Source: Alphaproteobacteria bacterium
GTDB taxonomy: Bacteria > Pseudomonadota > Alphaproteobacteria > Caulobacterales > Caulobacteraceae
Assembly: GCA_018820205.1 (NCBI GenBank)
Contig: JAHJOK010000016.1
Location: forward strand, 78,398-142,397
Reading direction: 5' to 3'
DNA length: 64,000 bases
Positions 23,732 through 34,753 of this stretch are shown here, piece by piece. The notes beneath the pieces are model-generated. The model made no database searches, was not told where the DNA came from, and saw nothing but the letters and a program-made list of their open reading frames with translations. Position numbers and translations under genes: made by a program. Numbering within the stretch: position 1 is the stretch's first letter; each line of letters begins with the position of its first letter.

Positions 23732-23924
23732 GGATGCATCCCCCTGTGTGATCTCGCAGTTGCGAACTGTTTACTGCAAAGTCGGGGGACGCAAGAGGGT
23801 CTGCCGTATTCGGCGCAATTTTCGTGTCCGTGTCGTGCGTTACACAATCACTTACGGCAAAATATTACCTTGACCATAGCTGCGATGCACAATTTTTCTG
23901 TGTGCGGGGAGTGTGACGAAATCA
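23732..23924. other. Intergenic region between leuB and amtB
   Basis: This gap holds the amtB promoter region, including AT-richer stretches around 23831-23903. I see no clear sigma-54 box with the required spacing, no strong terminator for leuB and no small gene. Confidence 0.5.
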
Positions 23925-25025
23925 TTAACCCCAGTGCATCTGGACCCGGTGCGCGGCCGCCCAGTGGATGGCGCGGATGGCGTCGATGATCGCCTCGGCC
24001 GCCGCGCGTGTGCCCAGTTCGCCACCCAGGTCCGCCGTCGTGGCGCCGGCCGCCAGTACCGCCGCGACCGCCGCCTCGATCGAGGTGGCTTCGTCGTCCA
24101 GGTTCAGACTGTGGCGCAGCATCATCGCGGCCGACAGGATGGTTCCGACCGGATTGGCCAGATCCTGACCCGCGATGTCGGGGGCGGAGCCGTGGATCGG
24201 CTCGAACAGGCCCGGTCCGGATTCTCCCAGGGACGCGGACGGCAACAGGCCGATCGATCCCCCCAGCACCGAAATCTCGTCCGACAGGATGTCACCGAAC
24301 ATGTTCTCGGTCAGGATGACGTCGTATTCGCGCGGCTTCCTGATCAGGTGCATGGCCATGGAGTCGACCAGGGCATGCTCCAGCTGGACCTGCGGGAACT
24401 CCTCGGCATGGATGCGGGTGACGACCTCGCGCCACAGCCTCGACGTCTCCATCACATTGGCCTTGTCGACCGAGGTGACCTTGCCGCGCCGTTGCAGGGC
24501 CGTCTTGAAGGCGGCCCGCGCGACCCGCTCGATCTCGGGAACCGTATAGATGCACAGGTCCGAGGCCATCGTGTCGGTGCGGGTCTTCTCGCCGAAATAG
24601 ACCCCGCCGGTCAGTTCGCGGAAGACGATCAGATCGACGCCCTCGACGATCTCTTTCTTCAAGGGCGAGCGGTGCGCCAGCACCGGCGAAACCTGCAGCG
24701 GACGCAGGTTGGCGAACAGGCCCATGGCCTTGCGGATGCCCAGAAGGCCTTCTTCGGGACGCCGCTTCTGGCCATCCCATTTCGGCCCGCCGACCGCACC
24801 CAGCAGCACGCCATCGGCCGCCAGACAGGCCTCGGTCGTTTCGGGCGGCAGGGGGTCGCCGGTCGCATCGATCGCCGCCCCGCCGATCAGATGCTCGCTG
24901 AACTGGAAGGTGTGACCATAGAAGTCGCCGATGACGCGCAGCACGTCCTTGGCCGCCGCCGTGACCTCGGGACCGACGCCGTCGCCCGGCAACAGCACGA
25001 TGTTGTAGGTCTGGGGGTTCGTCAT
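23925..25025 (-). CDS. leuB: 3-isopropylmalate dehydrogenase
   Basis: A 366-residue NAD-dependent decarboxylating dehydrogenase, third step of leucine synthesis. Motifs: YNIVLLPGDGVGPEV at the N-terminus, GGPKWDGQKRRPEEGLLGIR, the RELTGGVYFGEK and SVDKANVMETSRLWR substrate regions, and NMFGDILSDEISVLGGSIGLLPSASLG with the metal-binding aspartates. The ATG at 25025 overlaps the leuD stop (TGATG). Last gene of the ilv-leu operon. The C-terminus (AAHRVQMHWG) has no motif known to me. The long in-frame extension upstream overlaps leuD and is excluded. Confidence 0.96.
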   Translation of the reverse strand: MTNPQTYNIVLLPGDGVGPEVTAAAKDVLRVIGDFYGHTFQFSEHLIGGAAIDATGDPLPPETTEACLAADGVLLGAVGGPKWDGQKRRPEEGLLGIRKAMGLFANLRPLQVSPVLAHRSPLKKEIVEGVDLIVFRELTGGVYFGEKTRTDTMASDLCIYTVPEIERVARAAFKTALQRRGKVTSVDKANVMETSRLWREVVTRIHAEEFPQVQLEHALVDSMAMHLIRKPREYDVILTENMFGDILSDEISVLGGSIGLLPSASLGESGPGLFEPIHGSAPDIAGQDLANPVGTILSAAMMLRHSLNLDDEATSIEAAVAAVLAAGATTADLGGELGTRAAAEAIIDAIRAIHWAAAHRVQMHWG

Positions 25026-25624
25026 CACGCGGGCTCCGGGGAGTGGGCTTGTTCGTACTGTTCGATGGCGGGCATGGCCTTCTGCAGCCACCCCAGGGTG
25101 TCGACGCCGTCCAGCAGGCACTGGCGGGCGAACGGTTCGACGGAGAATGACACCGGCGCATGGTTGCCGCGCCGGACCTCGCCCGCCTCCAGGTCGATGG
25201 TCACGACCTGCTCGGGATTGGCGACCAGATCGTCCCAGGTCGCCTGGTCGACGACGACAGGCAGGAAGCCGTTCTTCAGCGCGTTCGAGGTGAAGATGTC
25301 GGCGATCGAGGTCGAGATCACGGCGCGGAATCCATAGTCGTACAGAGCCCACGGCGCATGTTCGCGCGACGAGCCGCAGCCGAAATTGTCGCCGGCCACC
25401 AGGATGCGGTGCTCGGCCGGATCGATGCGGTTCAGCACCGCCTCGGGCCGCGCCGAACCGTCCGCCTCATAGCGCCAGTCGTAGAAGGCCTTTGCCCCCA
25501 GGCCCGTCGTCTCGGTCGTGGTCAGGAACCGCGCCGGAATGATCTGGTCGGTGTCGATATTGGCCTGAGTCAGGACCAGGGTGCGCGACTGCAAAACCTT
25601 CAGCGGCTCAGGCACTTTTATCAC
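25025..25624 (-). CDS. leuD: 3-isopropylmalate dehydratase small subunit
   Basis: A 199-residue swivel domain that partners LeuC to isomerise 2- to 3-isopropylmalate. It contains QANIDTDQIIPARFL, LVAGDNFGCGSSREHAPWAL and FRAVISTSIADIFTSNALKNG, all diagnostic. No ATG lies near the expected N-terminus; GTG 25624 gives the family length, with GGGG from the adjacent palindromic element upstream. A second GTG at 25615 is possible. The reading frame stays open through the repeat up to 25708, but that part is repeat-derived and unlikely to be translated. Confidence 0.95.
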   Translation of the reverse strand: MIKVPEPLKVLQSRTLVLTQANIDTDQIIPARFLTTTETTGLGAKAFYDWRYEADGSARPEAVLNRIDPAEHRILVAGDNFGCGSSREHAPWALYDYGFRAVISTSIADIFTSNALKNGFLPVVVDQATWDDLVANPEQVVTIDLEAGEVRRGNHAPVSFSVEPFARQCLLDGVDTLGWLQKAMPAIEQYEQAHSPEPA

Positions 25625-25628
25625 CGTG

Positions 25629-25747
25629 CATCCCCGCGAAGGCGGGGACCCAGTTCTGTGGGCGATCATCGCCAACGGTTTTGCTTTGACAGCCATCCAG
25701 CGCACCATGCCTCATAAAAGCACTGGGTCCCCGCCTTCGCGGGGATG
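25629..25747. repeat. 119-bp element with 26-bp terminal inverted repeats, between leuC and leuD
   Basis: Left arm at 25629-25654 (CATCCCCGCGAAGGCGGGGA then CCCAGT) and a perfect inverted copy at 25722-25747. Each arm also contains its own CCCCGC/GCGGGG hairpin. The element has the same length and arms as 27197-27315, but a different interior. It nearly fills the leuC-leuD gap and abuts the leuD start. Confidence 0.85.
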
Positions 25748-25764
25748 AACGGCACAGAGTGTGA

Positions 25765-27183
25765 TCACGCATCGACCGCCTCCGACAGATAGACGCGCGG
25801 ATCGGTCAGCACCCCGGCGATGGCGCTGGCCGCCGCCGTGGCAGGGCTGGCCAGGATGGTGCGGGCGCCCTTGCCCTGACGGCCTTCAAAATTGCGGTTG
25901 GATGTCGAGACGGCCAGCTGGCCCGGGGCGACGAAATCCCCATTCATGGCGATGCACATCGAACAGCCCGGGATGCGCCATTCCGCGCCCGCCTCGGTGA
26001 AGACGTGGTGCAGGCCTTCGGCCTCCGCATCGCGACGCACGGCCTCGGAGCCCGGGACGACCAGCATCCGCACCCCTGACTTGACCTTGCGGCCGCGCAG
26101 CACCTCGGCGGCGGCGCGCAGGTCGGGCAGACGCCCGTTGGTGCAGGAGCCGATGAAGACGACATCCACGGCTTGCGTCGTCGTCGTCTCCCCGGCCGCG
26201 AAGCCCATGTAGGCCAGGGCCTTGCGGTCGCTGTCCGACCGGGGTTCGGGCACGCGGCTGCCGATCGGCGAGCCTGCGTCCGGCGTCGTGCCCCAGGTCG
26301 CCATGGGGCGGATAGCGGCGCCGTCCAGCACGATCTCGGCGTCGAAGGTCGCGGCCGGATCGCTCGCCAGCGTCAGCCATTCGGCGGCCTTCGCCTCATA
26401 GGCCGCGCCCTGCGGCACATGCTTTCTGCCGCGCAGCCAGTCGATGGTCTTGGCGTCCGGGGCGATCATGCCCGCGCGCGCGCCGGCCTCGATCGACATG
26501 TTGCACAGGGTCATCCGCCCTTCCATGTCCAGCGCCCGCACCGCCGCGCCCGCATATTCGATGACGAAGCCGGTGCCGCCGCCGAAGCCCAGTTCGGCGA
26601 TGACGGCCAGGGCCACGTCCTTGCCCGACACGCCGGGCTCCAGCGCGCCGTTCACGGTCACGCGCATGGCTTTCGACTTGCGCTGCAACAGGCACTGGGT
26701 CGCCAGAACATGGCCGACCTCCGAGGTGCCGATGCCGAAGGCCAAGGCCCCGAAGGCGCCGTGGGTCGCCGTATGGCTGTCGCCGCAGACGACGGTCATG
26801 CCCGGCTGGGTCAGGCCCAGCTCAGGTCCCATGACATGGACCACGCCTCGATCCTCGGAGGCCCACCCAGCCAGCGAAATGCCGTGCCGCTCGCAGTTGG
26901 CCTCCAGCCGATGCACCTGGGCCTCGGCCTCGGCGGTGACATAGGGTTTCCGGCCATCCGCCCCCTCGGGCAGGGTCGGGGTCGAATGGTCCAGGGTGGC
27001 GAAGGTCCGGTCGGGGCGGCGAACCTTCAGCCCCCGGCTTTCGATCTCGGTGAAGGCCTGGGGGCTGGTGACCTCGTGGACCAGATGCAGGTCGACATAG
27101 AGGACGCCCGGGGTCTCGGCGGTTTCAGCGACGACGACGTGCCGGTCCCAGACCTTGTCGAACAGGGTGCGGGGCTCAGACAC
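25765..27183 (-). CDS. leuC: 3-isopropylmalate dehydratase large subunit
   Basis: A 472-residue aconitase-family [4Fe-4S] enzyme. [41 protein letters not shown] with the first cluster cysteine, and [11 protein letters not shown] with the other two are all present, followed by [19 protein letters not shown]. It works with LeuD. GTG 27183 is chosen as the start: GGAG lies six bases upstream and the length fits; the open frame further upstream runs into a palindromic repeat. It is flanked on both sides by near-identical 119-bp elements. Confidence 0.96.
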
Positions 27184-27196
27184 AACCCACTCCGTG

Positions 27197-27315
27197 CATC
27201 CCCGCGAAGGCGGGGCCCCAGTTCTTTCGTGAGCCACTGTGCGCGGGTTTCATGCCGGTGCGGACTCGGTCGAACCGATCGCCCAAAGCACTGGGTCCCC
27301 GCCTTCGCGGGGATG
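27197..27315. repeat. 119-bp element with 26-bp terminal inverted repeats, between leuA and leuC
   Basis: The right arm at 27290-27315 is identical to that of the element at 25722-25747. The left arm at 27197-27222 differs by one base. The length is identical to the copy at 25629-25747, yet the internal ~67 bases are unrelated by eye. It occupies the whole leuA-leuC gap. Confidence 0.85.
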
Positions 27316-27329
27316 CTCGGAAACCAAAA

Positions 27330-28547
27330 TCAGGCAGCGACATACGAATCCCTCTGCGTCGCCGTGCAGATGGCGATCAGTTCGGCGTCGTCGATCTCGC
27401 CGATCTGGTCGGCGCGCGCCTTGAAGGCGGCGAAGGCGTCGGTCAGATGGTCGCCGACCAGCGGATAACCCAGGACCTCGGCCCGCTTCTGCACCGCCGT
27501 CCGGCCCGAATGCTTGCCCAGCACGAAGAAGCTGCCGGAGAAGCCGACGTCCTCGGGCCGCATGATCTCATAGGTGCGGGCGTCGGCGTACATGCCGTGC
27601 TGATGGATGCCGGCCTCGTGGGCGAAGGCGTTGATGCCGACGATGGCCTTGTTGCGCACGATCGGGGATTCGGTGACCTCGCTCAGCAGGCGGCTGGTCT
27701 CCAGCAGTTTGGTGGCGTCGATGCCGGTGGTGACGCCATAGCGTTCGGCCCGGACCCGCAGGGCCATCACGACCTCTTCCAGCGCCGCGTTGCCGGCCCG
27801 TTCGCCGATGCCGTTGATGGTGGATTCGACCTGGCGAACCCCGGCCTCGATGCCCGACAGGGTGTTGGCGACGGCCAGGCCCAGGTCGTTGTGGCAGTGG
27901 GTCGAGAAGACCACGTCGGGGAAACGCGGCCGGATCCGTGCGATCAGGAACCGGTACAGGGATGCGATCTCGTCCGGCGTCGCATAGCCGACCGTGTCGG
28001 GCACGTTCAGGGTCGAGGCGCCGGCCGCGCTGGCGGCCTCCAGCACCTCGGCCAGGAATTCGGGCTCGGTGCGGATGGCGTCCTCCGCCGAGAACTCCAC
28101 GTCGTGGAAATGGGTGCGGGCGTATTCGACCGCGCGCACGGCCTGGGCCAGCACCTCGTCCGGCGTCATCCGCAGCTTGGCGGCGCGGTGGATCGGGCTG
28201 GTGCCGATGAAGACGTGGCAGCGCCGGCGCTTCGTGCCTTTCAGGGCGCGATACGAGGCGTCGATGTCGGCCTCGTTGGCGCGCGACAGGGAACAGAAGA
28301 CCGGACCGGAATCGTCCTCGGCCATCTCGCCGACCACGGCGCGGATGCAGTCCTCGTCGCCCGGCGACGCGGCGGCGAAACCGGCCTCCATGATGTCGAC
28401 GCCCAGCGCCTTCAGCTGACGGCCCATGCGGACCTTGTCGGCGGGCGACATGGAAAAGCCCGGCGCCTGTTCGCCGTCGCGCATGGTGGTGTCGAAGATC
28501 ACGACCCGGTTCGGGTCGCTGGATACGCGTCCTACGGAGCCGGTCAT
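27330..28547 (-). CDS. leuA: 2-isopropylmalate synthase lacking the C-terminal regulatory domain
   Basis: A 405-residue Claisen-condensing enzyme, first committed step of leucine synthesis. The TIM barrel is complete: [19 protein letters not shown] (catalytic Arg and metal Asp), [16 protein letters not shown] (metal histidines), [19 protein letters not shown] and GIHQHGMY, followed by the [11 protein letters not shown] accessory region. Family members such as E. coli LeuA are about 520 residues because of a C-terminal leucine-binding domain; this protein ends where that domain would begin. It may therefore be leucine-insensitive, or a related synthase (homocitrate or citramalate synthase cannot be excluded by sequence alone). 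Position between ilvM and leuC favours LeuA. ATG overlaps the ilvM stop (ATGA). Confidence 0.88.
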
Positions 28548-28798
28548 GCCGCGGCCTCGTAGGCCTGGGCGGCGAAACCGGTGCGGGTGGCGCCGATCAG
28601 CTTGTCGATCTGGCGGCCCAGGTTCTCGGTGCAGCGTCCCTCGTCGCGACCCCGGACCTGCAGCTGGACGCGGCGCATGGCGCCCTCGTCCGACAGGCTC
28701 ATGCCGTCGATGTGGAAGCCGCGACGCTCCACGAGACCGATCAGGCGCTGGAGCGAGCCGTCGGCCCGGTCGATCTGGATATGGATGGTGTCGCTCAT
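28544..28798 (-). CDS. ilvM: Acetolactate synthase small subunit, short IlvM-type ACT protein
   Basis: An 84-residue protein consisting of one ACT domain: MSDTIHIQIDRADGSLQRLIG, RRGFHIDGMSLSDEG, VQLQVRGRDEGRCTENLGRQIDKLIG. Its size matches E. coli IlvM (about 87 residues) rather than IlvN (~96) or IlvH (~160). It should activate the catalytic subunit encoded just upstream; IlvM-type enzymes are characteristically resistant to valine inhibition. The start overlaps the ilvG stop (TGATG) and the stop overlaps the leuA start, so the three genes are translationally coupled. Confidence 0.88.
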   Translation of the reverse strand: MSDTIHIQIDRADGSLQRLIGLVERRGFHIDGMSLSDEGAMRRVQLQVRGRDEGRCTENLGRQIDKLIGATRTGFAAQAYEAAA

Positions 28799-30522
28799 CA
28801 CATGTCTCCTTCGAAGCGCGTGTCGTGCATCATCTCGCCATTGGACTTGCCCGGAGGGACAAGCGGCCAGACGTTTTCCTTGGGATCGATCAGGACGTGC
28901 ATCAGGCACGGGCCGGGCGCGGCCAGCAGACGGGCGATGCCGTCGGTGACCTGGTCGCGCCGGTCGATCATGAAGGCCTCGACGCCGAAGGCCTGGGCCA
29001 CGGCGACGAAGTCGGGGTTGTCCGACAGATCGACCTCGGAATAGTTCTCGGCGAAGAACAGCTCCTGCCACTGACGCACCAGTCCCAGGCTGGAGTTGTC
29101 CAGCAGCACGATCTTCAGCGCGACGCCGTAGCGGCGCAGGGTCGCCAGCTCCTGGATGTTCATCATGAAGCTGCCGTCGCCCGAGATGGTGACGACGTGG
29201 GCGTCGGGCCGGGCCATCTTGGCGCCCAGACCGGCCGGCAGGCCGTAGCCCATCGCGCCCAGACCGCCCGAGGTCAGGTGGCTTTCGGGCCGGGCGAATT
29301 CGCAGTGCTGGGCGACCCACATCTGGTGCTGGCCGACGTCGCAGGCGGCGACGAACCCGTCCCCGGCCGCCCTGGACAGCGCGTTCAGCAGGGCCGGCGC
29401 ATAGACGCCTTCGCCCGGCGCGTCATAGCGGAAGGCGTTGCGTTTGGCGTTCGAGGTCGAGCGGATGATCCACGGATCGATGGCCAGAGCCTTGGCCGCA
29501 ACCCGCTCGGTCAGGGCCTCGATGCCGGCCTTCAGGTCGCCGACGACCGGAACGTGGGCGGCGCGCAGCTTTCCGATCTCGGCCGGGTCGATGTCGAAAT
29601 GGACGACCTTCGCATGGGGGGCGAACGCGTTCAGCCTGCCGGTCGCGCGATCGTCGAACCGGGCGCCGAAGACGATCAGCAGATCTGAGTCCTGCACCGC
29701 CTCGTTCGCCGCCTTCGTCCCATGCATGCCCAGCATGCCCAGGAAGCCCGGCGCGTCGGTGCGGATCGACCCCAGGGCGTTCAGGGTCGAGACCGAGGGG
29801 ATGCCCGTCCGCTCGGCGAAGTCACGCAGAGCCTCCACGGCGCCGGCGATCTTCACTCCCCCGCCGACATAGATCAGCGGGCGCTCGGCGGCGCGGATCA
29901 GGGTTTCGGCCTCGGCGATCGCGGCATGATCCAGCGGCGTGATCTCGTTCGGATAGTGGAAGCCGAAATCTTCCGAGGTCATGCCGACCTGGACGTCCTT
30001 GGGCAGGTCGACCAGGACCGGACCGGGCCGACCCGAGCGGGCGACGTGGAAGGCCTCCTCGATCACCGCCGGAACATCCGCCGGGTCGCGCACGACCCAG
30101 GAGTGTTTCACCAGCGGCAGGGTGACGCCCAGGATGTCGATCTCCTGAAACGCATCGGTCCCCATCAGGTGGGTGGCGACATTGCCGGTGATGCAGACCA
30201 TCGGCACCGAATCCATCATCGCATTGGCGATGCCGGTGATCAGGTTTGTCGCGCCCGGTCCCGAGGTCGCCATACAGACGCCGACCTTGCCGGTCGCCCG
30301 GGCATAGGCGTCGGCGGCGAAGGCGGCGCCCTGTTCGTGACGGACCAGGATGTGCTTCACGCCCGCGCCGGTCAGGGCGTCATAGACCGGCATGATGGCG
30401 CCGCCCGGATAGCCGAACACCACATCCACGCCCAGGCGGTCCAGCGTCTGGACGAGCAGCCGGGCGCCGCTCTGGGGAGCGGCTGCGGCTTTGGCGCTGA
30501 TGGCGGTGGCGACTGCGGACAT
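28798..30522 (-). CDS. ilvG: Acetolactate synthase large subunit
   Basis: A 574-residue thiamine-diphosphate enzyme making acetolactate and acetohydroxybutyrate. VVFGYPGGAIMPVYDAL and the catalytic Glu in VRHEQGAAFAADAYARATGK are at the N-terminus. LIVFGARFDDRATGRLNAF belongs to the central FAD domain, and the TDP motif GDGSFMMNIQELATLRRYGV...LDNSSLGLVRQWQ is near the C-terminus. The name ilvG rather than ilvB is used because its partner is a short IlvM-like subunit. It follows ilvC after 33 bases. No clear Shine-Dalgarno precedes the ATG. Confidence 0.94.
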   Translation of the reverse strand: MSAVATAISAKAAAAPQSGARLLVQTLDRLGVDVVFGYPGGAIMPVYDALTGAGVKHILVRHEQGAAFAADAYARATGKVGVCMATSGPGATNLITGIANAMMDSVPMVCITGNVATHLMGTDAFQEIDILGVTLPLVKHSWVVRDPADVPAVIEEAFHVARSGRPGPVLVDLPKDVQVGMTSEDFGFHYPNEITPLDHAAIAEAETLIRAAERPLIYVGGGVKIAGAVEALRDFAERTGIPSVSTLNALGSIRTDAPGFLGMLGMHGTKAANEAVQDSDLLIVFGARFDDRATGRLNAFAPHAKVVHFDIDPAEIGKLRAAHVPVVGDLKAGIEALTERVAAKALAIDPWIIRSTSNAKRNAFRYDAPGEGVYAPALLNALSRAAGDGFVAACDVGQHQMWVAQHCEFARPESHLTSGGLGAMGYGLPAGLGAKMARPDAHVVTISGDGSFMMNIQELATLRRYGVALKIVLLDNSSLGLVRQWQELFFAENYSEVDLSDNPDFVAVAQAFGVEAFMIDRRDQVTDGIARLLAAPGPCLMHVLIDPKENVWPLVPPGKSNGEMMHDTRFEGDM

Positions 30523-30555
30523 TGCGGTTCTGACGCTGACTTTTTTGCGGTTCGA

Positions 30556-31566
30556 CTATGCGGCTTCGGCGGTCTTGGGTGCGTGCAGCCAGGCCATCCG
30601 CTCGCGCAGACCGGCGCCGACGGATTCGATCAGGTGATCGCTGTCGGCCTTGACCAGATCGTCATAGGCGCCCTTGCCGGCCTCGTTCTCGGCGATCCAT
30701 TCGCGGGCGAAGGTCCCATCCTGGATCTCGGTCAGGATTTCCTTCATGCGCGCGCGGGTCTCGGCGTTGATGACGCGCGGGCCGCTGACGACCGAACCCC
30801 ATTTGGCGGTCTCGGAGATGAACTCGTTCATCTTGGTGACGCCGCCTTCGTAGAACAGGTCCACGATCAGCTTCAGCTCGTGCATGCATTCGAAATAGGC
30901 GATCTCGGGCTGGTATCCGGCCTCGACGAGGGTGGTGAACCCGCCCATGACCAGTTCCTTGGCCCCGCCGCACAGGACGGCCTGTTCGCCGAACAGATCG
31001 GTCTCGGTCTCTTCCTTGAAAGAGGTTTCCAGCAGGCCGCCGGTCGCGCCGCCGATGCCCTTGGCATAGCCCATGGCCCGGTCGCGGGCCTTACCGGTCG
31101 CATCCTGCTCGACCGCGAACAGGGCGGGGACGCCGCGGCCGCGCGCATATTCGCGACGGACCAGATCGCCCGGTCCCTTGGGCGCGACCAGGATGACGTC
31201 CATGTCCTTACGCGGGGCGACGCGGCCGTACAGGATCGAGAAGCCGTGGGCGAACAGGATGGCCGCGCCCTTCTTGGCGTTGGGCTCGATGATGTCCTTG
31301 TAGATCTGGGCTTGGGCCATGTCGGGCGTCAGGATGGCGATGATGTCGGCCCCGCGAACCGCCTCGTCCGGCTCCGCCGTCGGCACGCCGTCGGCTTGGG
31401 CGTTCTTCCAGCCCTTGCCGCCCTGACGGACGCCGACGATCACCTCGTGGCCCGAGTCCTTCAGGTTCTGCGCGTGGGCGCGACCCTGCGAGCCATAGCC
31501 GATGACGGCGATGCGCTGGCCGGCGATGACGCCGGGACGGATGTCGTCGTTGGTGTAGATTTCCAT
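30556..31566 (-). CDS. ilvC: Ketol-acid reductoisomerase, class I
   Basis: A 336-residue NADPH-dependent enzyme that isomerises and reduces acetohydroxy acids. The Rossmann loop [45 protein letters not shown], and metal-binding [14 protein letters not shown] and [15 protein letters not shown] are all present. The short class I length and single knotted C-terminal domain fit non-enteric bacteria. Only three bases separate the ilvD stop from this start, and it is followed by ilvG. Confidence 0.97.
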
Positions 31567-31569
31567 GGC

Positions 31570-33336
31570 TCAGGCTTCCTGGGTTTGTTTGGTCTCGACC
31601 CGAACCTGGGCCGGCGGTGGGTTGGGAATGGTGACGGCGCCCTGGGCGGCCGATGCCACCTGCGCGCGGTATTTGGCGAAGACGCCGGTCGCAGCGTTCA
31701 GCGGCGGAGCGGTATGGGCGGCGCGGCGTGCGGTCAGGTCAGCGGCGACGTCGATGCGGCGCGCGGTCACGTCGATGGTGATCCGGTCGCCGTCGCGGAT
31801 CAGGCCGATGGGGCCGCCCGCAGCGGCCTCGGGCGAGACGTGCCCGGCGACGAAGCCATAGCTCGCCCCCGAAAAACGACCGTCGGTGATCAGGGCCACG
31901 TCGTGGATGCCGCGACCCTTCAGGGCGGCGGTGACCTGCAGCATCTCGCGCATGCCGGGGCCGCCTTGAGGCCCTTCGTAGCGGATGACGATGACGTCGC
32001 CTTCGCCGACCGATCCGTCCTGGACGGCGTGGAAGGCGTCTTCCTCACTGTCGAACACACAGGCCGGGCCTTCGAACCGGTCGACCTTGTGGCCGGTCAG
32101 CTTCAGAACCGCGCCGTCGGGCGCGATGTCGCCATAGATGACGGCGTAGGAGCCGCGCGGGCTGAACGGCTGGGCGACGGTCGAGACGACCTGCTGGCCT
32201 GGCGCTTCTTCGGCCTCGGCCGCCTCGGCGAACAGGCTGCGGCCCGAAACGGTGGGGGCGTTGACCAGCTTGCCGGCCTCGGCCAGCCGTTGCGTCACCA
32301 GACGGGTTCCGCCCGAGGCATACAGATGGCTCGCCAGGAACCGGCCGCCCGGCTTCAGGTCGCAGATGACCGGCGTCTGCTCGCAGGCGGTGTTGCAGTC
32401 CTCGACGCCGAACTCGATCCCCGCCTCGATGGCGATGGCGGTCAGGTGCAGCACCGCATTGGTCGACCCGCCCGAGGCGGAGACGGCGGCGGCGGCGTTC
32501 TTCAGCGAGGCGCGGGTGATGTATTTGCGGGCCGTGTCGCCGGCGAAGACGCGCTCGACGATCAGCTCGCCGCAGCGGTGGCCTTGCGCGCCCTTCATCG
32601 GATCGACCGCGGGGACGTCGTTGGCCCCCATCGGCGACAGGCCCATGACCGACAGGGCCATGGCCATGGTGTTGGCCGTGAACTGACCGCCGCAGGCGCC
32701 GGCGCCGGGGCAGGCCGCGCTCTCGACCGCCTTCAACTGCTGGTCGTCGATGGTTCCGGCGCCGCGCGCGCCGATCGCCTCGAACACGTCCTGAATCGAG
32801 ATTTCCCTGGGCCCGGCCGCCGTAGGGACGACGCCCGGCATGATCGTCCCGCCGTAGTAGACCAGACCCGGGATATCCATCCGGGCCAGGGCCATGGCGG
32901 CGGCGGGGATGGTCTTGTCGCAACCGACGATGCAGACGACGCCGTCCAGCTGATGGCCCTGGACCGCCAGCTCGATGGAGTCGGCGACGACCTCGCGGCT
33001 GATCAGCGAGGCCTTCATGCCCGGCGTCCCCATCGAGATGCCGTCGGTGACGACGATGGTGTTGAAGTCGATCGGGAAGCCGCCGGCCGCGATGATGCCG
33101 GCGCGGACGTCCTTGGCCAGGCGATCCAGGTGCATGTTGCAGGGGGTCACCGACGACCAGGTGTTGACCACCGCGATCATCGGCTTTTCGAAATCGGCGT
33201 CGTCCATGCCGGCGGCGCGCAGATAGCTGCGGGCGGCGGCGCGGTTCGCGCCAGCAGTCACGACGGCGCTGCGTCGCCCATTCCCTTGAGAGGGGGGCGA
33301 AGGCGCGATGTCTTCCGGGGTGAAATCTTGCGTCAT
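31570..33336 (-). CDS. ilvD: Dihydroxy-acid dehydratase
   Basis: A 588-residue Fe-S dehydratase giving the 2-oxo acid precursors of valine and isoleucine. Cluster and metal ligands are seen in WSSVTPCNMHLDRLA, GCDKTIPAAAMALARMD and ACPGAGACGGQFTANTMAMA; VVTDGISMGTPGMKASL and LITDGRFSGASYGFVAGHVSPEA are family signatures. It is the first structural gene of the operon, 42 bases downstream of an intrinsic terminator that belongs to an attenuator. The N-terminal ~20 residues (MTQDFTPEDIAPSPPSQG) are a non-conserved extension. Confidence 0.96.
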   Translation of the reverse strand: MTQDFTPEDIAPSPPSQGNGRRSAVVTAGANRAAARSYLRAAGMDDADFEKPMIAVVNTWSSVTPCNMHLDRLAKDVRAGIIAAGGFPIDFNTIVVTDGISMGTPGMKASLISREVVADSIELAVQGHQLDGVVCIVGCDKTIPAAAMALARMDIPGLVYYGGTIMPGVVPTAAGPREISIQDVFEAIGARGAGTIDDQQLKAVESAACPGAGACGGQFTANTMAMALSVMGLSPMGANDVPAVDPMKGAQGHRCGELIVERVFAGDTARKYITRASLKNAAAAVSASGGSTNAVLHLTAIAIEAGIEFGVEDCNTACEQTPVICDLKPGGRFLASHLYASGGTRLVTQRLAEAGKLVNAPTVSGRSLFAEAAEAEEAPGQQVVSTVAQPFSPRGSYAVIYGDIAPDGAVLKLTGHKVDRFEGPACVFDSEEDAFHAVQDGSVGEGDVIVIRYEGPQGGPGMREMLQVTAALKGRGIHDVALITDGRFSGASYGFVAGHVSPEAAAGGPIGLIRDGDRITIDVTARRIDVAADLTARRAAHTAPPLNAATGVFAKYRAQVASAAQGAVTIPNPPPAQVRVETKQTQEA

Positions 33337-33378
33337 TGTCTTAAGGCGTTCCGAGAGGGGTCTTCGGATCGGCGCAAC

Positions 33379-33407
33379 AAAAAACCCGCTTCCTTTCGGG
33401 AGCGGGT
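33379..33407 (-). terminator. Intrinsic terminator of the ilv attenuator
   Basis: Read on the minus strand: ACCCGCTCCC-GAAA-GGAAGCGGGT, a ten-pair stem with one G-U, followed at once by TTTTTTG. It lies 30 bases after the leader-peptide stop and 42 bases before the ilvD ATG, so it must be bypassed for operon expression. Its 5' arm is shared with an antiterminator helix. Confidence 0.88.
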
Positions 33408-33523
33408 GGCTGCGGGCGATCCTGAGTTTGCTTGGTTCAGGTCAGCTGCATCCACACCGCTCCGGAGAGCAGGCCGAGGAGTACGCTGAGAATAAGGGTG
33501 GTCAGGCCCATGACCTGAGCGGT
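33399..33523 (-). promoter_or_regulatory. Mutually exclusive attenuator helices of the ilv-leu operon
   Basis: On the minus strand three pairings are possible. Region 1 (ACCGCTC, 33517-33523) pairs with region 2 (GAGCGGT, 33456-33462), seven perfect pairs. Region 2 extended (GGAGCGGTGTGG, 33452-33463, exactly leader codons 43-46) pairs with region 3 (CCACCCGCTCC, 33399-33409), eleven pairs with one bulged T. Region 3 is also the 5' arm of the terminator at 33379-33407. This is the 1:2 / 2:3 / 3:4 arrangement of ribosome-mediated attenuation. Confidence 0.8.
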
Positions 33524-33589
33524 CACAGTGGGGCGTGCGACGGTGCGCGCGACGGCTCGGCTCGGGGTGTGACGGTTCGTATGGCGCAC
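33437..33589 (-). CDS. ilv operon leader peptide
   Basis: A 50-residue peptide starting at GTG 33589, with AGGAG six bases upstream. Its N-terminal half is Arg/Thr-rich. Its second half reads ...VMGLTTLILSVLLGLL..., with nine branched-chain residues in codons 29-41, and it ends ...VWMQLT. The hydrophobic run could be taken for a small membrane protein. The arrangement of stop codon, antiterminator and terminator directly upstream of ilvD instead argues that its job is to let a translating ribosome sense charged Leu, Ile and Val tRNAs. A starved ribosome would stall in the run over region 1, leaving region 2 free to form the antiterminator; a ribosome reaching the stop would mask region 2. Confidence 0.82.
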   Translation of the reverse strand: MRHTNRHTPSRAVARTVARPTVTAQVMGLTTLILSVLLGLLSGAVWMQLT

Positions 33590-33649
33590 GGCCAGCTCCT
33601 GATTACCGGAGCATAAGGTCAGACTTCGTGGCGACGCACAAGTCGCGCG

Positions 33650-33664
33650 TGGAAGAAACTTCCA
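33650..33664. promoter_or_regulatory. Short inverted repeat upstream of the ilv leader
   Basis: TGGAAG-AAA-CTTCCA is a perfect six-base dyad with a three-base centre, about 60 bases upstream of the leader-peptide start. It lies in the expected promoter region of the ilv operon and could be an operator, but no regulator can be named from sequence. Confidence 0.3.
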
Positions 33665-33721
33665 AAAACAGGGCTGAAAAGCCTCGACGTGGCAATTTCA
33701 ACCCTGTTGGAGGGTTCGGGG

Positions 33722-33886
33722 TTAGCCAACGACGGCCGAGACCGCCAGGAACGCCACGATCCAAAGGGCTGCGGAGCCTGCCCCTGCGACCGCATAGGCC
33801 AGAGGGGCCTGGGGAAATTTGTGCGACGAGCGACGCAGCGAGTCCGTCGTTCGCGGCAGGCCGGGGGTCAGGGGCTGAACAGTCAT
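33722..33886 (-). CDS. Small single-pass membrane protein, hypothetical
   Basis: A possible 54-residue protein from ATG 33886 (MTVQPLTPGLPRTTDSLRRS...) with a basic segment (RRSSHK) followed by one hydrophobic helix (LAYAVAGAGSAALWIVAFLAVSAVVG) reaching the C-terminus. GAG-rich sequence lies upstream. I do not recognise a family. It precedes the ilv leader on the same strand, separated by about 130 bases that contain a small AACCCT/AGGGTT hairpin (33700-33716). Coding is plausible from the coherent membrane topology but unproven. Confidence 0.45.
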   Translation of the reverse strand: MTVQPLTPGLPRTTDSLRRSSHKFPQAPLAYAVAGAGSAALWIVAFLAVSAVVG

Positions 33887-34075
33887 GCCCGAACTCTCGC
33901 CCGGCGGAGTCACGGAAGCATGAAGCGGCGCGGTTAACCGTCTGACGCGGCGCGGACTGTGGCGACGCCGCTACAGCGTTCTGCGAACGGGATAACGCCG
34001 GTCGATTCCACATTGCGCTGCACAATAGGTGGGCTTTACCTGTCATTAACGGTGTCAGGCCGTCAGGGGGTCGGG

Positions 34076-34753
34076 ATGTTCGACAGCGTTCCAGTTGCAC
34101 GACACGCCGATGCGAACCCGGGCGATTGCGCGGAGTGGGCGCCGCTGTTCCGGCGCACCCGGATGTGCGCACCGCTCAAGCGGGCCTTCGACGTGGTCGC
34201 CGCCAGCCTGATCCTCATCCTGTTCGCCTGGGCCTATGCGGCGATCGCCCTGGCCGTGGTCCTGGAGACCCGGGGGCCGGTCCTGTTCAGGCAGCGCCGG
34301 ACCGGCCGCTACGGCAAGGTCTTCACCATCTACAAATTCCGCAGCATGCGGGTCACCGAGGACGGCGACGACATCGCCCATGCGACCCGTGCCGACAGCC
34401 GCGTGACCGGGGTGGGCGCTTTCATCCGGGCCACCAGTCTGGACGAACTGCCTCAGTTGCTGAACGTCATCCGAGGGGACATGTCGCTGGTCGGGCCGCG
34501 GCCGCACGCCCTGGCCCATGACCTCCACTACGGCGCCCTGATCCCTCGGTATCGGGACCGTTTCGCGGTTCGGCCGGGCCTGACCGGCCTGGCGCAGGTT
34601 CTGGGTCGCCGGGGCGAGATCCATCAGCTGGACTGCATGTCCCGTCGCATCGACGCCGACGCCGACTACGCCGCGGGCTGGTCCTTCCCGGACGACCTGG
34701 CGATCATGGCGCGCACCATTCCCCTGCTGGTCGCCCGCACCAACGCCTACTGA
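34076..34753 (+). CDS. Initiating sugar-phosphate transferase (bacterial sugar transferase family)
   Basis: A 225-residue monotopic transferase: LKRAFDVVAASLILILFAWAY is the membrane re-entrant helix, followed by GPVLFRQRRTGRYGKVFTIYKFRSMR, RATSLDELPQLLNVIRGDMSLVGPRPH and RPGLTGLAQVLGRRGEI. These are the core motifs of the WcaJ/ExoY/PssY family, which transfer a sugar phosphate to undecaprenyl phosphate to start polysaccharide synthesis. It is the short form without the four-helix N-terminal domain. Start ATG 34076 has AGGGGG upstream; an in-frame extension to 33959 reads through apparent non-coding sequence. Confidence 0.9.
   Translation: MFDSVPVARHADANPGDCAEWAPLFRRTRMCAPLKRAFDVVAASLILILFAWAYAAIALAVVLETRGPVLFRQRRTGRYGKVFTIYKFRSMRVTEDGDDIAHATRADSRVTGVGAFIRATSLDELPQLLNVIRGDMSLVGPRPHALAHDLHYGALIPRYRDRFAVRPGLTGLAQVLGRRGEIHQLDCMSRRIDADADYAAGWSFPDDLAIMARTIPLLVARTNAY

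What the first reader, a model, noticed from the sequence alone, without database searches (positions are those of the whole stretch)
33379..33589. Complete ribosome-mediated attenuator ahead of an eight-gene ilv-leu operon
On the minus strand a well-initiated 50-codon leader (AGGAG, GTG start) has nine Leu/Ile/Val codons among codons 29-41. It is followed by a T6 terminator 42 bases before ilvD. Three mutually exclusive helices can be drawn: 1:2 (seven perfect pairs), 2:3 (eleven pairs with one bulge) and 3:4 (the terminator). Region 1 lies at codons 22-25 and region 2 exactly at codons 43-46, the positions needed for stalling and read-through control. Attenuation of ilv genes is known in enteric bacteria and reported for Caulobacter ilvBN. 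Here one leader would govern all of ilvD, C, G, M and leuA, C, D, B.
Basis: partly seen in the sequence, partly recalled or inferred. Interest (0 to 1): 0.85.

Follow-up and report, generated by a model that had tools for sequence, protein, structure and literature searches.

The report
Portable leader-peptide switch for ilv-leu operon
Just ahead of eight genes for making leucine, isoleucine and valine lies a tiny leader gene rich in rare codons for those same amino acids plus a terminator, likely a switch that turns the genes on when the amino acids run short, and the same arrangement is found in relatives from two bacterial classes.

Summary
The leader, terminator and antiterminator described are there and are conserved. 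A capped scan with IlvD returned its best 80 loci: 75 have a Leu/Ile/Val-rich leader and terminator-like stem before ilvD, 3 do not (Dyella), 2 hold no upstream DNA. They include Brevundimonas, Hyphomonadaceae, Parvularculaceae, Maricaulis, Robiginitomaculum and, in Gammaproteobacteria, Lysobacter, Arenimonas and Thermomonas. Helix 2:3 is far better than chance (mean z -3.06, 69 representatives). Twelve other-type Caulobacteraceae ilvD genes that I checked lack such a leader.

The strongest new point is codon choice. In the run, Leu/Ile/Val codons are mostly ones the operon avoids (CTT/CTC, GTA, ATT), while other amino acids in the same stretch keep usual codons. Six of the window's seven such codons sit where a stalled ribosome would leave region 2 free. 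This fits ribosome-mediated attenuation tuned to tRNA isoacceptors. The operon's LeuA lacks the LeuA_dimer regulatory domain. The kind of mechanism is textbook; distribution and codon signature make this family unusually testable. Regulation is inferred, not measured.

The parts
33650..33664 (.). TGGAAGTTTCTTCCA palindrome upstream of the promoter-like element; possible regulator site (inferred)
   Evidence: sequence; a GCAAAATTNTTGC-type palindrome lies at about the same place in many genus relatives
33613..33641 (-). promoter-like TTGTGC - 17 nt - CCTTAT (inferred)
   Evidence: TTGY is kept in 23 of 23 genus sequences aligned and TTGYRY in 21 of 23, about 50 nt before the leader start; not found by the E. 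coli-type scan
33596..33600 (-). AGGAG ribosome-binding site of the leader
   Evidence: sequence
33437..33589 (-). leader ORF, GTG start, 50 aa, TGA stop
   Evidence: a leader ORF is kept in 22 of 22 readable genus relatives
33476..33496 (-). regulatory codons 32-38: CTT ATT CTC AGC GTA CTC CTC, positions where a stalled ribosome would leave region 2 free; one more favoured codon (CTC, codon 41) lies beyond
33452..33463 (-). region 2 (GGAGCGGTGTGG)
33399..33409 (-). region 3 (CCACCCGCTCC), pairs with region 2 or region 4
33379..33393 (-). region 4 and T-run (GGAAGCGGGTTTTTT), 3' half of the terminator
31570..33336 (-). ilvD, dihydroxy-acid dehydratase
30556..31566 (-). ilvC, ketol-acid reductoisomerase
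28798..30522 (-). ilvG-type acetolactate synthase catalytic subunit
28544..28801 (-). ilvM-like acetolactate synthase small subunit (scores below curated cut-offs)
27330..28547 (-). leuA, 2-isopropylmalate synthase without the LeuA_dimer domain
25765..27237 (-). leuC (ORF end to end; the true start probably lies inside, after the REPIN-like pair)
25025..25708 (-). leuD (ORF end to end; true start probably inside)
23925..25031 (-). leuB

Best explanation
This is most likely a leader-peptide transcription attenuator in front of a branched-chain amino-acid operon, predicted to sense the charging of particular Leu, Val and Ile tRNA isoacceptors. Shown from sequence: the leader frame, the run rich in CTT/CTC, GTA and ATT codons, region 2 just behind the run, and region 3, which can pair either with region 2 (antiterminator) or with region 4 (terminator). 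Inferred: when charged tRNA-Leu(GAG), tRNA-Val(UAC) or tRNA-Ile runs short, the ribosome stalls on codons 32-38, region 2 stays free, 2:3 forms before region 4 is made, and polymerase reads on into ilvD. When the tRNAs are charged, the ribosome moves onto region 2 before region 3 can use it, 3:4 forms, and transcription stops. There is no conserved protector helix 1:2, so masking of region 2 by the moving or terminating ribosome would have to do its work. Control of all eight genes, and a compensating role for the missing LeuA_dimer domain, are inferred.
For: Conservation: 22 of 22 readable same-genus relatives have leader and terminator; of the best 80 loci kept by the capped, 75 have both (74, L074 by eye). 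Antiterminator 2:3: mean z -3.06, 54 of 69 representatives below -2. Two lineages change a region-3 base with both partners: T-A/T-A to A-T/A-T (Arenimonas L100) and to G-C/G-C (L101, L103); dealing region 3 out among 67 loci reaches the observed pairing in 0 of 300 shuffles. Leader frame has 9.3 Leu/Ile/Val codons of about 14 before region 2, against 2.4 and 0.6 in the other frames (the frame was chosen by this count). Codon bias, 25 Brevundimonas representatives: CTT+CTC 119 of 161 Leu, GTA 36 of 70 Val, ATT 27 of 37 Ile, against 2.8%, 0.6% and 6.8% in ilvD of the same loci. Control: non-LIV codons of the same 14-codon stretch are off their major codon in 41 of 120 (expected 40.7), LIV codons in 190 of 230 (expected 23.6). 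Geometry: by a recalled +15 nt leading edge, a ribosome with its A site at codons up to 38 leaves region 2 free; six of the window's seven favoured codons lie there. Own genome has tRNA-Leu GAG (one gene) apart from CAG and UAG, and Val UAC apart from GAC and CAC. Specificity: 12 other-type Caulobacteraceae ilvD genes, chosen by me from the listing, show no comparable leader plus terminator.
Against: No expression data. Helix 1:2, which in the textbook model pauses polymerase and protects region 2, is at chance; a local hairpin before the run is below z -2 in 12 of 68 loci and not in the window (z 0.14), so how polymerase and ribosome are synchronised is unexplained. At the stop codon the ribosome would cover only the 3' half of region 2 in the window. 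Covariation is modest: 0.849 of cells paired against a shuffle mean of 0.827; the median rank of the own region 3 among 69 is 14, and several loci (for example L005, L082, L094, L095, L098, L101) would pair better with the window's region 3 than with their own. L093 keeps the changed pair only in 2:3, L094 only in 2:3, and L102 has a mismatch on both sides. Off-major codons are also in excess elsewhere in the leader, for non-LIV codons too (upstream 245 of 530, expected 172.3; region 2 and after 108 of 147, expected 49.9), so specificity holds for the run only. One favoured codon of the window (CTC, 41) lies where region 2 would be covered. Three Dyella loci have related genes without this leader in front of ilvD. 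tRNA-Ile(GAU) was not among the 42 tRNA matches of the draft genome.
Confidence: 0.9

Rival explanations
1. The operon is controlled mainly by a DNA-binding regulator (LysR- or Lrp-type) at the palindrome upstream of the promoter, and the attenuator only trims basal transcription.
For: A palindrome lies upstream of the -35-like element in the window and in many genus relatives. An ilvD activator IlvR is recalled for Caulobacter (no call).
Against: Palindrome sequence differs between clades of the genus, whereas leader, codon run and terminator persist into Gammaproteobacteria. The palindrome was not looked for outside the genus.
Confidence: 0.12
2. The 50-codon ORF encodes a functional small membrane peptide; its Leu/Ile/Val richness is a transmembrane helix and the terminator a separate element.
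For: The peptide tail (LIL..VLLGLL.GAxW in the genus) is hydrophobic and conserved; a sub-threshold Pfam hit (Bestrophin-like, E 0.034) exists.
Against: Within the run, codon choice is skewed at Leu/Ile/Val codons and not at others; the N-terminal part varies much more than the rest; the stop is at a near-constant distance from region 2; region 2 tends to follow region 3.
Confidence: 0.03
3. The rare codons are there to keep the run free of RNA structure, not to sense isoacceptors.
For: Many favoured codons end in A or U; off-major codons are also in excess in other parts of the leader.
Against: CTC, which is not A/U-ending, is favoured over CTG too (70 against an expected 4.3 of 161 in Brevundimonas), and non-LIV codons in the same stretch keep normal third positions (A/T third 11 of 120, expected 10.7).
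Confidence: 0.15
4. The terminator is a plain 3' end of an upstream transcript and the leader is decoration.
For: Terminator-like stems are expected by chance at this composition (4.4 in shuffles of the 10.4 kb region).
Against: The stem's 5' arm finds a better-than-chance partner behind the codon run in 54 of 69 representatives (z below -2), and the stop codon is near-locked to region 2 (median 25 nt, quartiles 22-26).
Confidence: 0.02

Closest known systems
ilvGMEDA, ilvBN and leu operon attenuators of Escherichia coli / Salmonella
   Same: codon run in a leader, terminator before the first gene, competing antiterminator (general knowledge and passages of PMC1183508, which also names leu as the classic case of rare-codon choice)
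   Different: here ilv and leu genes share one leader; favoured regulatory codons are CTT/CTC, GTA, ATT; no conserved 1:2 helix; no sequence comparison with the E. coli leaders was made
Caulobacter crescentus ilvBN/ilvIH leader (Tarleton et al. 1994, not held; described in passages of PMC4117421)
   Same: same family; tandem Ile/Val codons and a rho-independent terminator as described in those passages
   Different: different operon (acetolactate synthase genes); in the 12 other-type Caulobacteraceae ilvD loci examined no such leader precedes ilvD
Predicted alpha- and gammaproteobacterial branched-chain attenuators of Vitreschak et al. 2004 (recalled, not seen)
   Same: same kind of element; alphaproteobacterial ilvIH recalled as a predicted target
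   Different: whether the Xanthomonadales or Caulobacterales form described here is in that paper could not be checked
S. aureus leucine-rich attenuator peptide (PMC5794164, title and start of abstract in search listings)
   Same: an attenuator peptide represses branched-chain synthesis genes (from the title)
   Different: Firmicute; not compared in sequence; the paper was not read
ilvD motif RNA of Veillonella (passages of PMC8632094)
   Same: lies before ilvD, some members with a terminator stem
   Different: reported only in Veillonella and as a weak riboswitch candidate; not a leader-peptide element in those passages

Membership tests
Ribosome-mediated (leader-peptide) transcription attenuator | short leader ORF with ribosome-binding site before the operon | tested here: met
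   translation itself not tested
Ribosome-mediated (leader-peptide) transcription attenuator | run of codons for the amino acids made by the operon | tested here: met
Ribosome-mediated (leader-peptide) transcription attenuator | intrinsic terminator between leader and first gene | tested here: met
   as sequence, termination not measured
Ribosome-mediated (leader-peptide) transcription attenuator | antiterminator that shares an arm with the terminator | tested here: met
Ribosome-mediated (leader-peptide) transcription attenuator | read-through rises on starvation for the amino acids, depending on leader translation | not testable with these tools
   needs an experiment
Four-region trp/his-type attenuator | protector/pause helix 1:2 that excludes 2:3 | tested here: not met
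   mean z -0.08, 1 of 69 below -2; a separate local hairpin before the run is below z -2 in 12 of 68
Any Rfam family (copy of release 15) | covariance-model match | tested here: not met
   no match at gathering score in the window; at E up to 10 in 33300-33700 five matches, all far below gathering score (best mir-1992, plus strand) and none of an amino-acid leader
Caulobacter ilvBN/ilvIH attenuator | leader directly precedes acetolactate synthase genes | tested here: not met
   here the leader directly precedes ilvD, followed by ilvC

The most novel reading that the evidence does not exclude
A portable, factor-free control cassette: a branched-chain attenuator that stays attached to its ilv(-leu) operon in lineages of two proteobacterial classes, stands in for the missing regulatory domain of LeuA, reads the isoacceptors whose codons the operon itself avoids (Leu-GAG, Val-UAC, AUU by Ile), is re-tuned to each host's codon usage, and works without a protector helix because the ribosome itself masks region 2.
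Probability: 0.4. Interest if true: 0.62.

Novelty: new member of a known kind. Interest (0 to 1): 0.45.

Why it matters
Selective tRNA charging was proposed to explain codon choice in E. coli leaders (passages of PMC1183508). This family offers dozens of partly independent sequences in organisms with other codon usage, with a built-in control (the other codons of the same stretch), so the idea can be tested by comparison and by simple recoding. It is also a candidate case of a regulator that needs no trans factor and so could travel with its operon, and a possible reason why an operon can do without enzyme-level leucine feedback.

Tried and rejected
A self-contained pause hairpin before the run as a general feature: 12 of 68 loci below z -2 (40 shuffles each), among them L068, L070, L071 and L073; not in the window. 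Rfam: nothing relevant. E. coli-type promoter and terminator scan of 23800-34200: 0 promoters, and it missed the bulged terminator. Horizontal transfer with a stated direction: the IlvD tree (51 rows; L063 and L080 dropped for internal stops) splits the operon type from 12 other Caulobacteraceae at 100/100, but the root is arbitrary and Xanthomonadales are not shown to be nested, so direction is left open. Literature: ten searches gave no listing that describes this leader; most listed papers were not opened and most subscription papers are not held, so this is weak evidence of absence. Passages were read in PMC1183508, PMC8632094, PMC4117421 and PMC2965389.

Representatives were chosen at under 80% ungapped identity, which indels can fool, so some of the 69 are still near relatives (for example L003 and L031). 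The leader frame was chosen by its Leu/Ile/Val count. In a few loci (L018, L057) the automatic region 2 is too long. Binomial p-values treat codons as independent. Duplex energies ignore the cost of closing a loop. The locus of G435 (L160) was looked at in part only and its leader was not assessed.

Full report
WHAT IS IN THE WINDOW. On the minus strand, AGGAG (33600-33596) precedes a GTG-started ORF of 50 codons ending in TGA at 33437. Codons 29-41 hold nine Leu/Ile/Val codons. A stem ACCCGCTCCCGAAAGGAAGCGGGT (-15.0 kcal/mol) with six T ends 42 bases before ilvD. NCBIfam places the following genes as ilvD, ilvC, ilvG-type acetolactate synthase, a short ilvM-like subunit (below curated cut-offs), leuA, leuC, leuD and leuB.

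CONSERVATION IN THE GENUS. Of 40 same-genus genomes (own included), 24 have the operon-type ilvD (79% identity or more) and 16 do not. Upstream DNA was fetched for the 23 others; one (L024) is masked and was dropped. All 22 readable ones keep a leader of 45-55 codons (start codons chosen by me) and a terminator. The order ilvD-C-G-M-leuA-C-D-B is complete in 20 of 23 fetched loci; L007, L022 and L023 show no leuA in the stretch.

CONSERVATION BEYOND THE GENUS. Two of the 80 start inside ilvD; three Dyella loci (L097, L099, L104), where ilvD follows leuB, have no leader; the other 75 have a Leu/Ile/Val-rich leader followed by a terminator-like stem (in L065 the stem has no T-run; terminators of L065, L067 and L100 were located by hand; L074 was judged by eye and left out of the statistics). 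They include Brevundimonas, Hyphomonadaceae/Terricaulis, Parvularculaceae, Maricaulis, Robiginitomaculum, two loci labelled Novosphingopyxis and Citromicrobium and, in Gammaproteobacteria, Lysobacter, Arenimonas and Thermomonas. In an evenly drawn sample of 289 genomes of the class, 2 (own included) have an IlvD at E up to 1e-170, so the gene type is patchy. Twelve ilvD genes of the other type (43-48% identity) from the same family, chosen by me from the listing, show no comparable leader plus terminator in the 450 nt upstream: one has a T5 run, and the densest 12-codon windows hold 5-7 Leu/Ile/Val. An IlvD tree separates the two types at 100/100. The attenuator therefore goes with the gene type rather than with the family. 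Transfer between classes is likely (inference), but its direction is open.

STRUCTURE. I tested helices on 69 representatives of 97 loci (23 genus sequences and 74). Region 2 with region 3: mean z -3.06 against 300 dinucleotide shuffles each, 54 of 69 below -2. In the window the 2:3 duplex scores -22.3 and the 3:4 stem -15.0, but the duplex value leaves out the cost of closing the loop. Own region 3 fits better than the average of other loci in 56 of 69; its median rank among 69 is 14, and several loci would pair better with the window's region 3. With region 3 dealt out among 67 loci, 0 of 300 shuffles reach the observed pairing (0.849 against mean 0.827; two Parvularcula loci without the anchor were left out). 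Arenimonas L100 and L101, L103 (Lysobacter, Thermomonas) change the same region-3 base and both its partners; L093 and L094 keep the pair in 2:3 only, L102 in neither. Helix 1:2 is at chance (mean z -0.08; window z -0.33). A separate local hairpin before the run is below z -2 in 12 of 68 loci, not in the window. The leader stop lies a median of 25 nt after the start of region 2 (quartiles 22-26, range -1 to 51; the upper extremes are loci with a badly placed region 2).

CODON CHOICE. In the 20 codons before region 2, 25 Brevundimonas representatives use CTT or CTC for 119 of 161 Leu, GTA for 36 of 70 Val and ATT for 27 of 37 Ile; in ilvD of the same loci these make up 2.8%, 0.6% and 6.8%. The 44 other loci lean the same way (CTT 111 of 262, GTA 54 of 177, ATT 60 of 80). 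In six operon genes of the window CTT+CTC are 5 of 197 Leu, GTA 3 of 236 Val, ATT 4 of 150 Ile; in three neighbouring genes CTT+CTC are 20 of 140, GTA 0 of 109, ATT 1 of 55. The internal control: in the 14 codons before region 2, non-LIV codons are off the locus's major codon in 41 of 120 (expected 40.7) and LIV codons in 190 of 230 (expected 23.6) in Brevundimonas; in the other loci 103 of 183 (85.6) and 344 of 431 (190.4). Against a simple reading, off-major codons are also in excess elsewhere in the Brevundimonas leaders: upstream, LIV 53 of 111 (21.3) and non-LIV 245 of 530 (172.3); in region 2 and after, LIV 24 of 34 (5.1) and non-LIV 108 of 147 (49.9). The specificity to LIV codons is thus shown for the run only; pairing constraints in region 2 may explain the excess there (inference). 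With a leading edge of 15 nt past the first P-site base (recalled value), stalling at codons up to 38 leaves region 2 free; codons 32-38 hold six of the window's seven favoured codons, and the seventh (CTC, 41) lies beyond. The own genome has one tRNA-Leu(GAG) gene beside CAG, UAG, CAA and two UAA, and tRNA-Val UAC, GAC and CAC. tRNA-Ile(GAU) was not among the 42 matches; the genome is a draft (92% complete). This is the pattern the selective-charging theory asks for (passages of PMC1183508), except that CTT/CTC and ATT/ATC would share readers, so a preference for U-ending forms may reflect slow wobble reading (inference).

HOW IT WOULD WORK. Inferred from the above: a ribosome short of charged Leu-GAG, Val-UAC or Ile tRNA stalls before region 2, 2:3 forms and transcription goes on; otherwise the ribosome runs onto region 2, 3:4 forms and transcription ends. 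Without a conserved 1:2 helix, masking by the ribosome must carry the terminating branch, and what synchronises polymerase and ribosome is not explained.

METABOLIC SETTING. LeuA of the operon (405 aa) has the HMGL-like and post-HMGL domains but no LeuA_dimer domain, which is recalled as the leucine-binding regulatory part. None is found in the own genome, while all 14 control genomes have one; in the genus 5 of 41 genomes have one, among them G180, whose operon stretch (L022) shows no leuA, and G195, whose stretch (L006) does. Lack of enzyme-level leucine feedback would leave the leader as the leucine sensor (inference).

WHAT IS KNOWN. Attenuation of ilv and leu operons is classical, and a leader for ilvBN/ilvIH is described in Caulobacter (passages of PMC4117421). 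The ten searches listed no account of this ilvD leader; most listed papers were not opened, most subscription papers are not held, and the 2004 survey of proteobacterial attenuators (recalled) could not be read. I therefore rate the element a new member of a known kind, with a distribution and a codon signature that deserve work.

Noticed in passing
window 25630-25746 and 27198-27314: REPIN-like inverted pairs of ATCCCCGCGAAGGCGGGGACCCAG inside the operon at leuC-leuD and leuA-leuC; 68 copies (up to 3 mismatches) in the own genome, 0 in the reversed-pattern control. In relatives L003 and L004 the same genes overlap or nearly abut.
   Followed up: partly
same-genus genomes G002, G024, G037, G049, G058, G066, G073, G083, G092, G112, G143, G147, G168, G174, G177, G186: 16 of 40 genus genomes lack the operon-type ilvD; of these, 14 have an IlvC of 44-48% identity (a second copy of that kind is also in operon-bearing G139 and G192) and all 16 only distant IlvG-like proteins (29-35%), so many may be branched-chain auxotrophs.
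   Followed up: partly
window 27330-28547: LeuA without the LeuA_dimer domain; 36 of 41 genus genomes show no such domain at all.
   Followed up: partly
L068, L070, L071, L073: Strong self-contained hairpins just before the codon run (z -2.96 to -6.18), in L068/L070/L071 with apparently compensating changes (by eye); candidate pause hairpins.
   Followed up: partly
window 33650-33664: Palindrome TGGAAGTTTCTTCCA upstream of the promoter-like element, with GCAAAATTNTTGC in its place in many other Brevundimonas: possible regulator site.
   Followed up: no
L057, L058, L067 and L068-L071: After ilvC these loci have an acetolactate synthase gene only 44-46% identical to the window's IlvG, although the leader before ilvD is kept: the downstream gene may have been swapped under the same leader.
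   Followed up: no
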